From the NCBI GenBank assembly GCA_000508305.1, contig CP006977.1, forward strand, positions 1,334,621 through 1,398,620: a DNA stretch of 64,000 nt. The letters are read 5' to 3'. Every line of letters starts with the position of its first letter. The stretch's first letter is position 1. Shown piece after piece: positions 51,787 to 58,324 of the stretch. Both the position numbers and the translations under genes were made by a program. Source of the stretch: Sulfolobus acidocaldarius SUSAZ (lineage in GTDB: Archaea; Thermoproteota; Thermoprotei_A; Sulfolobales; Sulfolobaceae). The notes under the pieces are model-generated. The model saw only the letters and a list, made by a program, of their open reading frames with translations. It did not search any database and was not told the origin of the DNA.

Positions 51787-52534
<748 letters not shown>

Positions 52535-52616: not shown

Positions 52617-53180
52617 TTAGCTACTAGGTACTGTCGTATAAGTATATACTATTCTAAACCAATAGTTGTTTACTTTGTATATAATCCATACTACCAAATC
52701 TTGGTTACTATTTACTCCATTATATTTTATCGTAAAAGGAGAATTGAAGGAGACCGTGTAGACCTGTAAGTTAGAAGGGGAGTAAATTACTGACCCTCCT
52801 ACGTCATATATACTCCCTGATATAGTGGTGGTCTTGGCTAGTTGATTGTTTGTCAAGTAAACTTGATAATTTAGTGAAGATGTAGACGGTGTAACTACTC
52901 CTACACTGGGCTGTAGTGATGCAGGTATTGTAAACGCTACTACCTCAATACTACCGTTAACACTGGGGTTATAAACTTCTGCCACTACACTTCCTACAGT
53001 GTTATTAACAAGGAGAGGTCCTACAGATAGGGAAGTGGAACCAGCAATTTGGTTAGCTTGTTGCTGAGATATGGAAAATACCTCTTTTGGTAAGAAGTAA
53101 GCGAATGAGAATGCTAGAAGAGCAATCCCAATTCCTACTACAGCTATAATTAATATTAATTGAGGAACTACTGACTCCAT
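52617..53180 (-). CDS. Pilin-like surface protein
   Basis: The 187-residue protein has an N-terminal 30-residue hydrophobic helix directly after MESVVP (QLILIIAVVGIGIALLAFSF), as in archaeal type IV pilins and flagellins, followed by a beta-rich ectodomain. The end contains VVWIIYKVNNYWFRIVYTYT, very similar in pattern to IIVLWFLLYYSGKWYRLGYG in the divergent neighbour. There is no K/R-G/A cleavage site before the helix, so processing by PibD is doubtful. The start is ATG at 53180, 81 bases from the divergent start at 53262. It may belong to the surface cluster to its right. Confidence 0.55.
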   Translation of the reverse strand: MESVVPQLILIIAVVGIGIALLAFSFAYFLPKEVFSISQQQANQIAGSTSLSVGPLLVNNTVGSVVAEVYNPSVNGSIEVVAFTIPASLQPSVGVVTPSTSSLNYQVYLTNNQLAKTTTISGSIYDVGGSVIYSPSNLQVYTVSFNSPFTIKYNGVNSNQDLVVWIIYKVNNYWFRIVYTYTTVPSS

Positions 53181-53261
53181 TGTTTAACAACTATAATCGA
53201 CAATATATAAGTTTTTCAGAAGAATCGAAAGATATAAAACTGTCTTATACAATTTTAGAAT

Positions 53262-54587
53262 GTGCCTACTGTAGTAGCTACATTTATACTTGTCATAGCT
53301 GTATTCTTGATATCTATCATAGTCTTCTTCTATTACGCAGGATATTTGGGTTTACTTTCTCCATCAATCATTAACCAGGAGTATCTTATAGGTCTATCTA
53401 AATCTATACAGATAAGTGTCTCTAATGTTGCATTCAAAGGAGTTTCACCAAATCTGATTAGCTTTAACGTTAGTTATTTAATCACAGTTAGCTCTCCTGC
53501 AAAAGTCCTCACAGTCATCCCCTTTGTGACTGTGAATTCGCCTAGCATATTTTACTCTCAACCCTCAACAAATCAGAATGTAATAATTACAAAAGCCAAC
53601 TCAACTGCTTACATTCCGCTTAAAAATTTCAGAATAAATGGACCAGTATATATACCTCAACAGAATATGCTTTTAGGAAATTTGGTCAATATTTATGCGT
53701 ATAACATGTCTTCCAACTCCTCTTATGTAATTTATGCGAATGTGAAGCCTGGTCAAATAATAGTTCTTTGGTTCCTGTTATATTATAGTGGGAAGTGGTA
53801 TAGACTAGGTTATGGTTATTTGGACCCTAATCCTTCATTAGCTGTAAATACCATTTCAGGAACAGGTAAATATAATGTAACTTCACAATCAGCTCCTCAG
53901 CCTTTAATAAGCGTAAATAACCAGGGGTTTCAATTTGGCATGTGGTTTTCTCCCATAATAAACTCATCGATTCCAGTCCCACTACTTAATATATCATTTA
54001 ACTCTGTGAGTCATGGTGGTTCCAACTATACGTTAACATTTTATGTGAAGAATAGTAATTTGTATTTATCAGGAACTCAAATTCCAAATACCTTAATTGC
54101 ACAGCTTAATGTTAGGCAATACTATTTCCTCAATTTTAGTTTTGGTTCTTTCCTTAATCTGGTTAATAATGTTAATGTAAATTTATACAATTCGACAACC
54201 CAAATAAATAAAACATTAATTTCCCTTAATATAGGTTCACATAACGGTTACAACTTTAGCGTAACTTTTGGATCTACTAAGTACTCAGAGTTTGCTATCT
54301 TTCAAGCATTTTTTGTTACTGTCCAAGACAAAACAGGTCTACCGGCGTTCTACAATGTCTCTAATCAGGTTCTAAATAATGGTTATCTATACAATAATAC
54401 TAATAATTTGTTCAATATAATTAATAATAATAATAATCTTTACGCTGTGGGCTATTGGTATTTTGTATACCCCTCTTTCCCAATTCCTAAACAAATTTCA
54501 GGTTTATTGTGGTATTATTGGAAGTCTAACAATCTGTATAACTTAACTATACCTGAGACCTCACCTAATACTTATGTTGCGGTATGA
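53262..54587 (+). CDS. Large pilin-like surface protein
   Basis: The 441-residue protein has an N-terminal helix right after the start (TVVATFILVIAVFLISIIVF), then an Asn-, Ser- and Tyr-rich ectodomain with many sequons. Its first half (residues about 30-190) shares with the divergent 187-residue protein the segment PGQIIVLWFLLYYSGKWYRL; the second half (about 210-441) contains FQFGMWFSPIINSS and PVPLLNISFNSV, which resemble a lectin-like jelly-roll, but this is only an impression. Low-complexity Asn runs occur near the end. The start is GTG at 53262. It looks like a glycosylated surface appendage or adhesin. Confidence 0.55.
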   Translation: MPTVVATFILVIAVFLISIIVFFYYAGYLGLLSPSIINQEYLIGLSKSIQISVSNVAFKGVSPNLISFNVSYLITVSSPAKVLTVIPFVTVNSPSIFYSQPSTNQNVIITKANSTAYIPLKNFRINGPVYIPQQNMLLGNLVNIYAYNMSSNSSYVIYANVKPGQIIVLWFLLYYSGKWYRLGYGYLDPNPSLAVNTISGTGKYNVTSQSAPQPLISVNNQGFQFGMWFSPIINSSIPVPLLNISFNSVSHGGSNYTLTFYVKNSNLYLSGTQIPNTLIAQLNVRQYYFLNFSFGSFLNLVNNVNVNLYNSTTQINKTLISLNIGSHNGYNFSVTFGSTKYSEFAIFQAFFVTVQDKTGLPAFYNVSNQVLNNGYLYNNTNNLFNIINNNNNLYAVGYWYFVYPSFPIPKQISGLLWYYWKSNNLYNLTIPETSPNTYVAV

Positions 54588-54677: not shown

Positions 54678-54703
54678 AAAGTCAAAGAGTAAAGTCAAAG
54701 AGT
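54678..54703 (+). repeat. Tandem 13-base direct repeat upstream of the PibD-substrate operon
   Basis: AAAGTCAAAGAGT occurs twice without a gap (54678-54690 and 54691-54703), ending 75 bases before the ATG at 54779. A TATA-like GATATATTAGA follows at about 54726. The position upstream of the promoter suits an activator or repressor site. Confidence 0.5.
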
Positions 54704-54778
54704 TGAGTAATACTACCTTCGATAAGATATATTAGATTTTTCACCATAAGTGAGTAAAAAGATACATTTATTAAATAG

Positions 54779-56461
54779 ATGTCTATAATAATGTATAGGA
54801 GAATGAAAAGGCAAAAATTACGTATTGGTTTATCAATCCCTATAGGTCTCTTGATATTTCTTGTTATATTAGCACTGGTTCTCGTACCCGCTATAATTAT
54901 ATTTAATTCTTCTTCTTCATATCTTTCCCAATCAAATATAGCTAATTCCGGTCAACAACAATTGAAGGAAAAAGAACAACAACAGATATTTAGAGGAAAT
55001 CCTAATATCTTTTACAACTCAACAAAAAATCCTCCCCCAACACTGGTTTTCATTTATAACAACATACCTGTTCCCTTCAATATTTCAACAGTGTATTACT
55101 TTAATGGAACCATGTGGTTGCCTGTCACAAAGAATATAGTAGTGGGGTACAACGTGACATTGCCATTGCCCAATTACGTCTTTAACAAACCTCTTTTAAT
55201 AGTAAGTGCATTATCTAATTTCTATTTCTTATACCCTAATACTTCTGTCACGGCAATTATGGTATCAGGACCTGTTGGTAAAATACCGGTTTACATTACT
55301 GCATTTGCCATAAATGGGTCAAGGTATTTACCATTAAACGTTAACATGAGACTTGGGCAGGAAAATAACTTTTCCTCTCCTAAGATATTCTACCTAACAC
55401 CAGGTACATATCAGTTAACAGACAATAATATTAAAGTATTTTTACAGCAATATGGTCTCACAGCACAATTTATGAACTGGTCTTATGTGGGTAATGGTCA
55501 GTTAACAAGTGCTACATCCCCATCAACTACATTCACCGTAACTGGTCCACTCGTAATAACTGCTGTATATAAGACATTTACACAGACCTATAAAGTGCTC
55601 ATAATGCCAAACAACATACCACTTGGGACAAGTTTGACATATAACATTAAAGGAAATTGTAACGGTAATGGTAAAGGAGGCTGTATAAGCACTACAGTCA
55701 CTTTGACTTCTCTAAACACTACTATTCCAGTTTTTGTAGACAACAGATTATATCAGGTCGGACAAAACGGCATAACATTAAGTTTATCTTATGGTTACCA
55801 TATTATTCAGTTCCCCTCAAGTTACAATATAACCTTCAATTACACTGGTGGATATTTCACAAAACCAGTATTGGGTGGTCAAATTACTACGTACACATTT
55901 ACTAATCTACTATCTAGCTCTAGCAATATATCAGTACTTGGTAACACTGAGATATTTCTAAATGGTAGCGGTACAGTCAAGGGCGTGTTTAGTAATACCT
56001 CCACATATTACTTAGTTACAGTTTATAACAATTTTGCATTTCCTAATAACGTTTATTATTATACTAATAATACACCCGTTTTAGGTAATATAGCAGCACA
56101 ACTACTTGGCGTAACAGTGTCTACCACAGGTCAAAATATCGTATTGGGTCCAACTCAGAACTATGTGCCTGAGAAAATTTATTTTAAGGCGAACACTAAT
56201 CTTAATATATATATTGACTACTTAAATACTATCAATGGTACATTTACTATATTTAGTAATTATGGAAAAGGAAGTTACATAGGGCTATTATCATATCCAA
56301 ACGGTGTTCAGGTCTACAATGTTTTTAGTTATTCAGGAGGACGACCTCAAACCTATAATCCTCAGGCAAATAATGGAAATTATGGGACAATTCAAGTCAT
56401 TTCTCCACTTATAATAATTAACAATCAGGTGTGGGAATACGGTGGTGTGGAAAATGGCTAA
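54779..56461 (+). CDS. Class III signal-peptide surface protein 1 (putative PibD substrate)
   Basis: The 560-residue protein has a basic leader MKRQKLRIG followed by LSIPIGLLIFLVILALVLVP, which fits the archaeal prepilin-peptidase rule (K/R shortly before G/A, then L/I-S and a hydrophobic helix). A coiled linker rich in Gln (NSGQQQLKEKEQQQ) follows, then a module containing NIFYNSTKNPPPTLVFIYNN, YYFNGTMWLPVTKNI and a YPNTS end, and a second module FMNWSYVGNGQLTSATSP. Both modules recur in the next gene. Starts at ATG 54779, 54791 or 54803 are possible. It overlaps the next gene by eight bases. Confidence 0.6.
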   Translation: MSIIMYRRMKRQKLRIGLSIPIGLLIFLVILALVLVPAIIIFNSSSSYLSQSNIANSGQQQLKEKEQQQIFRGNPNIFYNSTKNPPPTLVFIYNNIPVPFNISTVYYFNGTMWLPVTKNIVVGYNVTLPLPNYVFNKPLLIVSALSNFYFLYPNTSVTAIMVSGPVGKIPVYITAFAINGSRYLPLNVNMRLGQENNFSSPKIFYLTPGTYQLTDNNIKVFLQQYGLTAQFMNWSYVGNGQLTSATSPSTTFTVTGPLVITAVYKTFTQTYKVLIMPNNIPLGTSLTYNIKGNCNGNGKGGCISTTVTLTSLNTTIPVFVDNRLYQVGQNGITLSLSYGYHIIQFPSSYNITFNYTGGYFTKPVLGGQITTYTFTNLLSSSSNISVLGNTEIFLNGSGTVKGVFSNTSTYYLVTVYNNFAFPNNVYYYTNNTPVLGNIAAQLLGVTVSTTGQNIVLGPTQNYVPEKIYFKANTNLNIYIDYLNTINGTFTIFSNYGKGSYIGLLSYPNGVQVYNVFSYSGGRPQTYNPQANNGNYGTIQVISPLIIINNQVWEYGGVENG

Positions 56462-57857
56462 AGCCATATCTGCTCCCATTACTTTTGCCATAATTTTAGT
56501 CATTGGTATATTGCTCCTAATTCCTTTCCTTACTTACGTAACGTACTTATCTCAAAGTAACCAGATTTCTCAAGCTCAATTCAATAATTATGTTTACCTG
56601 AAGAACTTGGAACAACAGAGGGCGGTATCAGGCAGACCAGGCGTATACTATAATGGTAGCTCTCTATTTATCTTATATTCCAACGGAACTTTCGTACCCA
56701 ATTCGAGCATAATAGTTGTAGGAATTCTCTACCTTAACAATTTGGGTGTTTGGCAGAACATAACAAGCCTGAAGTATCCTATAATTCTCAATAAGACTGC
56801 TTCAATTAATCTACCATCAAATGTGGCTGGCAAACCTATAATACTGGTGACTTCACTGGGTAATATATTCTTTTTACAACCTGGGTCAAGTATTGGTCCC
56901 TACTCCAACTCCATTAGTAAAGGGGGAGTAACTATAATATCCCAGATTTACACTTCATCTCAAATATATTCAACCTCAATTAATATTACAAGTAACATAA
57001 ATGGAAAATTTAGCAATTACACTACTCCAATAACTTTTTCCAACCAGACAGGAACATTTCAAGTAAGGGCACCAAAGTATATCTACTATATTAACAGTAA
57101 GACGGGTAGAGTAATTACGGGAGTATTTAGTAATTGGCAAATCCTAGGTTCGGGAACAGTAAATAGTACAACAACTCAGGGGATTACAGTTACATTACAA
57201 GGGAAGCCTGCTATTTTAATAGCTAACTATTCCCAACTTATTCAGAACGTATCTCTTTCCATTACGACTAATGCCAAATTTAGTGTAGTGGTTAATATAA
57301 ATGGTGTGAGCTATACGGTAAATAATGGTGTATTATTAGTTACTGTACCAGCAGGATATGTCAACTTTACAGTTTATACACTCCAGGGAAACGATACTAG
57401 TTTAAAGTCGAGCGGAATTATTAAACATTACAAGTTTAACACAATTAATTACAACGGAAATAGTTATGTAACTAACTCTCAGCTGCTATTCCTTCCACCT
57501 AATTCTAATTTATTGCCTTATGTACAAATAAACTATATCAACGATTATAACTATTATCAAGTGACTTTTAATAGCTATTACGACTCCCCACCTCCTGGTG
57601 GAGTAGATGTCTATTTAAATGGCACTGAATATAACTATGGAGAAACTTATTGGATAATAGGGGGTAACTATAGTTTTGGTCCCACTGGGATATTTACGGG
57701 TTATCAAACATACCAAGCAAAAGAAGTGACTATTGCTGAAAATAACGTGATAGTCAAATACTATTATTTTCCTGACATACCAAGTTATATACTTATTAAT
57801 CAACCAATGACAATAACAGTCTATTACGACTATGTAATAAATTGGGTGCCGATATGA
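56454..57857 (+). CDS. Class III signal-peptide surface protein 2 (putative PibD substrate)
   Basis: The protein has about 467 residues. The N-terminus MAKAISAPITFAIILVIGIL has K-A before I-S, the classical PibD cleavage context, followed by a long hydrophobic helix and the linker LSQSNQISQAQFNNYVYL. Module 1 (GVYYNGSSLFILYSNGTF to GNIFFLQPGSS) and module 2 (FSNWQILGSGTVNSTTTQ) match those of the preceding protein, and a third part (NGVSYTVNNGVLLVTVPA onward) ends with a C-terminal beta domain. ATG 56454 is preferred over the frame opening at GTG 56442. It overlaps genes on both sides, so one transcript is certain to cover all three. Confidence 0.6.
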   Translation: MAKAISAPITFAIILVIGILLLIPFLTYVTYLSQSNQISQAQFNNYVYLKNLEQQRAVSGRPGVYYNGSSLFILYSNGTFVPNSSIIVVGILYLNNLGVWQNITSLKYPIILNKTASINLPSNVAGKPIILVTSLGNIFFLQPGSSIGPYSNSISKGGVTIISQIYTSSQIYSTSINITSNINGKFSNYTTPITFSNQTGTFQVRAPKYIYYINSKTGRVITGVFSNWQILGSGTVNSTTTQGITVTLQGKPAILIANYSQLIQNVSLSITTNAKFSVVVNINGVSYTVNNGVLLVTVPAGYVNFTVYTLQGNDTSLKSSGIIKHYKFNTINYNGNSYVTNSQLLFLPPNSNLLPYVQINYINDYNYYQVTFNSYYDSPPPGGVDVYLNGTEYNYGETYWIIGGNYSFGPTGIFTGYQTYQAKEVTIAENNVIVKYYYFPDIPSYILINQPMTITVYYDYVINWVPI

Positions 57858-58324
57858 GGGCGATCTCAGACTACATAGGGTTTGTAATAGCTCTAGTTAT
57901 ACTTGTGGTATTGTTAATACCATTATTTCTTGTCCTTACAAACTATTCTTCACCGTCAACTCAACAGATCAACTACTATCCTATAATAAGTAATCAGGTT
58001 AATGGTGGTAGTGTACCCATTTATTATAACGCAACTCCTAATGGTCCTACCATAATAGTGTTTAAACAAAGCGGAAATTACACGCTATTTGGTGTCTATT
58101 ATCTAAATGGTGGTAAAATTTACAATATAACTCAAGAAGTGAATGTGATTATAATAAGTTCAAGCGGTAAAGTGACCAATACTGGTAAGACTCTTCCAGT
58201 GGCTCTAGTATATAACTTTACCATTCCGAAACAGTACTGGAACTATACTTTAATTTTACAGCTTCAGGCGTATCAGACAACTGTGTACGCGACGTTATAT
58301 CCTAACACCACAGCATTAGTCTAG
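57854..58324 (+). CDS. Class III signal-peptide surface protein 3 (putative PibD substrate)
   Basis: The 156-residue protein begins MRAISDYIGFVIALVILVVL, with R-A before I-S and the hydrophobic helix of a type IV pilin-like protein. Its ectodomain is only module 1 of the two larger neighbours (VPIYYNATPNGPTIIVFK, FGVYYLNGGKIYNITQEV, ending ATLYPNT). Starting at ATG 57854 gives an ATGA overlap with the preceding stop; the frame is open from TTG 57842. In size and layout it is the most pilin-like of the three and may be the main structural subunit, which is inference. Confidence 0.62.
   Translation: MRAISDYIGFVIALVILVVLLIPLFLVLTNYSSPSTQQINYYPIISNQVNGGSVPIYYNATPNGPTIIVFKQSGNYTLFGVYYLNGGKIYNITQEVNVIIISSSGKVTNTGKTLPVALVYNFTIPKQYWNYTLILQLQAYQTTVYATLYPNTTALV

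What the first reader, a model, noticed from the sequence alone, without database searches (positions are those of the whole stretch)
54678..58324. Three-gene overlapping operon of large PibD-type (class III signal peptide) surface proteins with shared modules
The three N-termini (…KLRIG/LSIPIG, MAKA/ISAPIT, MRA/ISDYIGF, slash marking the inferred cleavage) fit the archaeal prepilin-peptidase rule. Gene ends overlap by 8 bases and by an ATGA. The ectodomains share module 1 (xYYN…VYYLNG…NIT…YPNT-like) in all three proteins and module 2 (FxNWxxxGxGxxxSxT) in the two large ones, with sizes of about 560, 467 and 156 residues. No assembly ATPase or platform protein is adjacent, so the operon is not the ups, aap or archaellum cluster as I know them. 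It could encode a filament or adhesin complex that borrows the assembly machine of another pilus, or a bindosome-like envelope structure.
Basis: partly seen in the sequence, partly recalled or inferred. Interest (0 to 1): 0.8.

Follow-up and report, generated by a model that had tools for sequence, protein, structure and literature searches.

The report
Sulfolobaceae modular minor-pilin adhesion cluster
A set of surface-protein genes kept together across one archaeal family seems to build the sticky, pilus-related outer parts of the cell, and a published deletion that happens to remove the same genes in a laboratory strain makes the cells overproduce their swimming filaments.

Summary
The three overlapping genes are real. 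They are paralogues that share an N-terminal pilin module, and the two long ones carry large beta-rich extensions. They are only part of a conserved FIVE-gene module. In most Sulfolobaceae the order is <-P0004 | P0005->P0001->P0002->P0003.

P0001-P0003 orthologues carry the PibD-type motif (48 of 49; the window's P0001 is the exception, with Ile at -2). P0004 and P0005 mostly do not (5 of 35). The pilin module is distantly homologous to UpsB. P0004 ends in a probable ConA/LamG lectin-like domain.

The genome has no bindosome ATPase and no archaellum. AapE is the only assembly ATPase found in all 18 genomes with the cluster.

Primers published for strain MW2106 (deletion saci_1676-saci_1686, hyper-archaellated) map so that the deletion ends exactly at the stop codon of the P0003 orthologue. 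It therefore removes this cluster plus upstream genes. Deletion of aapF is also reported to give hyper-archaellated cells.

Best reading: modular minor pilins and membrane partners of an adhesion pilus, most likely Aap, with Ups as the main pilus rival. No function has been published in the papers I could search.

The parts
54779..56461 (+). P0001, 560 aa: pilin module (about residues 1-160) plus a large beta-rich extension; N-terminus ...KLRIG/LSIPIG
   Evidence: -2 position off the class III rule only in genus Sulfolobus
56454..57857 (+). P0002, 467 aa: class III pilin-like protein (MAKA/ISAPI), pilin module plus extension with module 2
   Evidence: pilin module homologous to UpsB
57854..58324 (+). 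P0003, 156 aa: class III pilin-like protein (MRA/ISDYIGF), pilin module only
53262..54587 (+). P0004, 441 aa: N-terminal membrane helix, P0005-like beta domain, C-terminal ConA/LamG-like jelly roll (about 222-354)
   Evidence: conserved partner in 16 loci; P0005-like domain 98.9%, E 1.5e-17; AF2 plus Foldseek; PF13385 in one orthologue, E 4.5e-4
52617..53180 (-). P0005, 187 aa: single N-terminal membrane helix plus beta domain, no class III motif; first gene of the operon in most other genera
53181..53261 (.). Intergenic region between the divergent P0005 and P0004 genes (shared promoter region, inferred)
   Evidence: the divergent pair is conserved but inverted relative to P0001 in genus Sulfolobus; sequence
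54678..54703 (.). Two tandem copies of AAAGTCAAAGAGT upstream of P0001
   Evidence: the G032 strain carries one copy
51787..52050 (+). 87-aa ORF: decayed remnant of a 601-aa class III-type gene that is intact in G032 (L086:4567-6372)
   Evidence: blastn 77% over 240 bp plus an inverted fragment

Best explanation
The five-gene module encodes the minor, non-repeating outer parts of an adhesion filament. P0001, P0002 and P0003 are minor pilins processed by PibD. P0003 is a bare pilin module; P0001 and P0002 are modular pilins carrying large beta-rich extensions. P0005 and P0004 are unprocessed, membrane-anchored beta-sandwich partners, and P0004 carries a lectin-like domain that could bind glycans on the S-layer, another cell or a surface. 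The three pilins have no ATPase of their own and are inserted in trans by a resident type IV pilus machine, most likely Aap (AapE/AapF), where they would start or cap the pilus and present the adhesive domains. Loss of the complex would be read by the cell like loss of Aap and would de-repress the archaellum where one exists. Shown here: homology, gene order, class III motifs, ATPase census and the position of the published deletion. Inferred: PibD cleavage, assembly in trans, tip location, glycan binding and the reason for hyper-archaellation.
For: Pilin module shared by all three and related to UpsB: hhalign 94.6%, E 7e-8 over 114 columns. A UpsB query hits a P0002 orthologue (6.8e-4), and the P0002 profile hits UpsB in G000 and G032 (7.8e-5, 1.4e-4). 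Class III rule met in 48/49 P0001-P0003 orthologues, against 5/35 for P0004/P0005. Large extensions on a shared pilin module match the modular-pilin design (PMC8179133, PMC9934059). Five-gene order conserved across genera, with P0005/P0001 usually overlapping by ATGA. AapE in 22/22 genomes and the only assembly ATPase present in all 18 cluster genomes; G011 has AapE alone, and the window's genome has AapE plus UpsE only. Published strain MW2106 (PMC11607397) is hyper-archaellated; its primers map to 1433709 and to the stop codon of the P0003 orthologue in G032. Deletion of aapF is also reported to give hyper-archaellated cells (Henche 2012, cited in PMC6396743). ConA-like domain in P0004.
Against: AapE is in every Sulfolobaceae genome examined, so co-occurrence cannot separate Aap from other hosts. 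The pilin module resembles UpsB more than AapB beyond the first helix. MW2106 also lacks four unrelated genes and another 176/601-aa pair, and the paper gives no reason for the deletion; whether Aap pili are missing in MW2106 is unclear. The only genus-g2 genome with the cluster, G011, lacks Ups and has P0002 broken in both copies, which fits Ups better. P0001 of the window departs from the PibD rule. AF2 models are weak (mean pLDDT 55.9 and 44.7).
Confidence: 0.4

Rival explanations
1. A stand-alone envelope complex that is never part of a pilus: PibD trims P0001-P0003, which stay in the membrane under the S-layer with P0004 and P0005 and act as a surface adhesin, glycan receptor or S-layer linker.
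For: No ATPase or platform gene in any cluster locus. Subunits of about 470-560 aa are very large for a filament shaft. P0004 and P0005 lack the class III motif and should stay anchored. Pairs of a P0005-like gene next to a large P0001-like gene recur on their own in many genomes.
Against: The class III motif and hydrophobic helix are strictly kept in 48/49 orthologues and the module is homologous to a true pilus subunit, UpsB. Deletion of the block alters another type IV filament (PMC11607397).
Confidence: 0.3
2. Additional minor pilins of the UV-induced Ups pilus, like the unlinked UpsC, giving it glycan-recognising tips for species-specific aggregation.
For: Pilin module homologous to UpsB. 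A pilin-like UpsC encoded away from the ups operon is known (PMC11868833). UpsE in 17/18 cluster genomes; of the two genomes without ups, G050 lacks the cluster and G011 has P0002 broken twice.
Against: G011 keeps the other four genes without ups. The hyper-archaellated phenotype of the deletion is reported without UV treatment (PMC11607397). UpsC is reported absent from Acidianus, whereas the cluster is in genus g7 (probably Acidianus, judged only from genome size), so the cluster is probably not UpsC itself.
Confidence: 0.18
3. P0005 and P0004 are a second ArlG/ArlF-type stator-like pair, so the cluster anchors a filament to the S-layer.
For: Short N-terminus without positive charge, uncleaved helix followed by a beta domain; hhalign P0005/ArlG 57% over 22 N-terminal residues. 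Partner domains related to each other, as ArlF and ArlG are.
Against: No similarity outside the helix; P0005/ArlF and P0004/ArlF below 1%. Foldseek gives no ArlF/ArlG match among the listed hits. Cluster present in 10 genomes without ArlI.
Confidence: 0.08
4. The cluster mainly regulates motility or surface sensing, with archaellum repression as its real task.
For: The MW2106 deletion is hyper-archaellated (PMC11607397).
Against: The window's own genome has no ArlI or ArlG, and 10 of 18 cluster genomes lack ArlI.
Confidence: 0.04

Closest known systems
Modular minor pilins PilB/PilC (with PilA) of Streptococcus sanguinis type IV pili (PMC8179133, PMC9934059)
   Same: Several class III pilin-like proteins encoded together, some with a short pilin module plus a bulky extension; a ConA-like lectin module is in the set; predicted tip-located adhesive complex.
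   Different: Archaeal; no sequence homology shown; the lectin-like domain here sits on P0004, which lacks the class III motif; no ATPase in the locus.
UpsA/UpsB (and UpsC) of the Ups pilus
   Same: N-terminal pilin module homologous to UpsB; UpsC is also an unlinked pilin-like protein.
   Different: Cluster not in the ups operon; two proteins 3-4 times larger; accompanied by P0004/P0005; persists in one genome without ups.
Aap adhesion pilus (AapB, AapA, AapE, AapF)
   Same: Class III pilins of the same genomes; AapE always present; loss of aapF and loss of the saci_1676-1686 block both reported hyper-archaellated.
   Different: Only helix-level similarity to AapB; separate locus; the Aap shaft is AapB alone (PMC11178815).
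Archaellum stator proteins ArlF/ArlG
   Same: Uncleaved N-terminal helix plus a beta domain; two related partners.
   Different: No homology beyond the helix; present where the archaellum is absent.
Bindosome (Bas) system
   Same: Class III surface proteins with a proposed envelope role.
   Different: No BasE-type ATPase in this genome; no sugar-binding-protein domain detected.

Membership tests
PibD-processed class III signal peptide proteins | [charged/polar][G/A]/hydrophobic cleavage motif before a hydrophobic helix | tested here: met
   P0002 15/15, P0003 19/19, P0001 14/15 orthologues; the window's P0001 itself fails at -2
PibD-processed class III signal peptide proteins | Prepilin peptidase in the genome | tested here: met
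   PF01478 in 22/22 genomes including G000
PibD-processed class III signal peptide proteins | Cleavage by PibD observed | not testable with these tools
   needs a cleavage assay or mass spectrometry
Modular pilins | N-terminal pilin module fused to an extra module | tested here: met
   P0001 and P0002 share the P0003/UpsB-like module and add about 300-400 aa
Modular pilins | Identifiable functional domain on the pilin itself | tested here: not met
   no family above cut-off in P0001/P0002 orthologues; the lectin-like domain is on P0004, which lacks the class III motif
Modular pilins | Presence in a pilus, at its tip | not testable with these tools
   needs filament proteomics or imaging
Ups pilus | Subunit homologous to UpsA/UpsB | tested here: met
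   hhalign P0002/UpsB 94.6%, E 7e-8; hits in both directions
Ups pilus | Linked to or always found with upsE/upsF | tested here: inconclusive
   not linked; UpsE in 17/18 cluster genomes
Ups pilus | Induced by UV | not testable with these tools
   no expression data held
Aap pilus | aapE present in all genomes with the cluster | tested here: met
   18/18, but also 4/4 without the cluster, so not discriminating
Aap pilus | Homology to AapB/AapA beyond the first helix | tested here: not met
   P0001/AapB 81% over 56 columns at the N-terminus only; P0002 26%, P0003 7%
Bindosome (Bas) | BasE/BasF machine in the genome | tested here: not met
   BasE-type ATPase in 5/22 genomes, not in G000
Archaellum stator ArlF/ArlG | ArlF/ArlG domain homology | tested here: not met
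   P0005/ArlG limited to 22 helix residues
ConA-like lectin (P0004 C-terminus) | Jelly-roll fold or LamG profile | tested here: inconclusive
   Foldseek probability 0.9-1.0 to LNS/galectin domains but E 0.004-0.05; PF13385 E 4.5e-4, below the gathering score, in one of 16 orthologues
S-layer or thread proteins | Sequence match to solved structures | tested here: not met
   no relevant PDB hit for P0001-P0003

The most novel reading that the evidence does not exclude
An undescribed Sulfolobaceae-specific filament tip or surface-sensing complex: modular archaeal pilins plus an unprocessed lectin-like partner that ride on a shared pilus machine, and whose state sets the Aap-to-archaellum switch. 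A reduced two-gene form (P0005-like plus P0001-like) recurs across the family; P0005-like and P0002-profile matches occur in all 31 Sulfolobaceae genomes listed, while P0005-like matches occur nowhere else in the class sampled.
Probability: 0.3. Interest if true: 0.8.

Novelty: new variant of a known kind. Interest (0 to 1): 0.6.

Why it matters
Cryo-EM structures of Aap show only AapB, and the tip, adhesin and priming subunits of Sulfolobales pili are unknown; how cells couple loss of adhesion pili to more archaella is also open (PMC11178785, PMC6396743). This cluster is a concrete candidate for both, and an existing strain (MW2106) already lacks it, so simple follow-up deletions can decide.

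Tried and rejected
Pfam, NCBIfam and PDB sequence searches: no usable family for the three proteins. AF2 of P0002: mean pLDDT 44.7, not used for fold search. Module 2 resembles InlB-type 'F-x-W' repeats from memory, but no Pfam repeat matched any orthologue, so it was dropped. Identity with UpsC was considered and judged unlikely but not formally excluded (REY15A sequence not in hand). Genomic linkage to Aap-type pilins: found near 2 cluster loci (L107, L105), about what chance would give. The search for related loci returned only four loci. A paper listing Saci_1682 in a target table for an AbfR1 homologue could not be matched securely to P0005 and was not used.
Full report
OBSERVATION. The three ORFs, their overlaps (8 bases and ATGA) and sizes are as described. 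They are paralogues: P0001/P0002 BLASTP E 1e-14, P0001/P0003 1e-5, P0002/P0003 4e-5. With orthologue alignments the relation is certain: P0001/P0002 99.95%, E 1.6e-37; P0002/P0003 97%, E 1e-10. P0003 is essentially the shared N-terminal module alone; P0001 and P0002 add 300-400 residues containing module 2.

A LARGER UNIT. The window's genome (G000) is a single 2,061,920-bp contig, genus Sulfolobus by its nearest relative G032, which has the exact length I recall for S. acidocaldarius DSM 639 (2,225,959 bp). Orthologues of P0002 and P0003 occur in 18 of 22 genomes of the family and in none outside it among 147 genomes of the order. Their neighbourhoods show a constant five-gene module: P0004 facing away from P0005, then P0001, P0002, P0003, with P0005 usually overlapping P0001 by ATGA. 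In the window and G032 the P0004/P0005 pair is inverted as a block, so P0004 now precedes P0001 and P0005 points away. G042 and G059 have a diverged version of the cluster. Two-gene versions, a P0005-like gene next to a large P0001-like gene, recur elsewhere (for example G136, G114, G125, G108, G050; coordinates). With profiles, all 31 family genomes listed have matches to the P0002 and P0005 families; outside the family P0005 has none, and P0002 only seven weak N-terminal matches.

SIGNAL PEPTIDES. Using a class III rule (polar or charged at -2, G/A at -1, hydrophobic stretch), 48 of 49 P0001-P0003 orthologue sequences pass; the failure is the window's own P0001, Ile at -2 (G032's split copy, not in that set, reads SIG/LSIP). 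Of P0004/P0005 only 5 of 35 pass. In the whole window one other gene passes. The rule is as I recall it from Szabo et al. 2007.

RELATION TO KNOWN PILINS. Profiles built from the arl, ups and aap loci show that the P0002 pilin module matches UpsB (94.6%, E 7e-8, 114 columns); P0001 and P0003 match at about 89%. The UpsB sequence finds a P0002 orthologue directly and the P0002 profile finds UpsB. AapB similarity is limited to the helix region. P0005 and P0004 are related to each other (98.9%) but to ArlG only over 22 N-terminal residues.

P0004. The AF2 model is weak (mean pLDDT 55.9) but shows one N-terminal helix, a beta domain and a jelly roll at 222-354, parts at pLDDT 70-88. Foldseek lists neurexin LNS, galectin and CBM folds with probability up to 1.00, though E-values are only 0.004-0.05. 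One orthologue hits Laminin_G_3 at 4.5e-4, below the gathering score. I call it probable ConA-like, not proven.

WHICH MACHINE. I classified the secretion ATPases of 22 family genomes. AapE: 22/22. UpsE: 20/22 (absent in G011, G050). ArlI: 11/22. BasE-like: 5/22. The five-gene cluster is with AapE 18/18, UpsE 17/18, ArlI 8/18, BasE 4/18. G000 has AapE and UpsE but no ArlI, ArlG or BasE. This excludes a need for the archaellum or the bindosome. It cannot separate Aap from Ups, since AapE is universal, and G011, without ups, keeps the cluster but with P0002 broken in both copies.

A PUBLISHED PHENOTYPE. PMC11607397 reports strain MW2106, an in-frame deletion of saci_1676-saci_1686, as hyper-archaellated, and prints the primers. 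I placed them: the upstream primer at G032:1433709-1433738, at the start of a 225-aa gene; the downstream primer at the stop codon of the P0003 orthologue (P0003 ends 1446705, the primer match starts 1446707); the sequencing primer at 1446941. The deletion therefore removes the whole cluster, a 176/601-aa P0005-like/class III pair, and four upstream genes. Counting genes gives P0003 = Saci_1686 and, by inference, P0005 = Saci_1682; the numbering of the inner genes is not verified. Deletion of aapF is also reported to cause hyper-archaellation (Henche 2012, cited in PMC6396743). The paper describes the MW2106 sample as archaella and some threads, but a methods sentence about Aap templates is ambiguous, so I do not claim that Aap are absent. 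I found no other paper in the library that names these genes except one unclear table entry.

EVOLUTION. In G032 P0001 is split by a one-base deletion near codon 82, yet dN/dS between G000 and G032 downstream of it is 0.19, so the break is recent or a sequencing error. Cluster genes evolve faster (dN/dS about 0.12-0.35) than neighbouring controls (0.04-0.06), as expected for surface proteins. The window's 87-aa ORF at 51787-52050 is a remnant of the 601-aa gene.

CONCLUSION. Secure: a conserved five-gene module of three pilin-like class III proteins and two uncleaved partners. Likely: surface adhesion. Less certain: that the pilins are tip or priming subunits of Aap (0.4), against a stand-alone envelope complex (0.3) or Ups (0.18). 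The working model follows the bacterial modular pilins (PMC8179133, PMC9934059) by analogy, not by shown homology.

Noticed in passing
L086:8656-10340 (G032:1443155-1444839): The P0001 orthologue of the DSM 639-size genome is split by a one-base deletion while the rest stays under purifying selection (dN/dS 0.19).
   Followed up: yes
window 51787-52158: Decayed remnants, one inverted, of a 601-aa class III-type gene that is intact in G032 next to a P0005-like 176-aa gene.
   Followed up: partly
G000 whole genome: No archaellum ATPase (ArlI) and no ArlG were found, so this Sulfolobus appears to lack an archaellum, unlike G032.
   Followed up: partly
window 54678-54703: Tandem 13-bp repeat AAAGTCAAAGAGT upstream of P0001; G032 has one copy.
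   Followed up: no
L103:5952-15731 and L104:5138-13137: Diverged versions of the cluster with 730-820-aa class III proteins, a 500-aa secreted protein with a C-terminal membrane helix, and a 760-800-aa P0004-like protein.
   Followed up: partly
L091:8761-10158 and L092:17162-18328: Both G011 copies of P0002 carry in-frame stops in a genome that lacks upsE; this may mean decay after loss of Ups.
   Followed up: partly
L107:280-852 and L105:17378-17902: Aap-type major pilin genes lie within 2-8 kb of two cluster copies; about what chance gives.
   Followed up: yes
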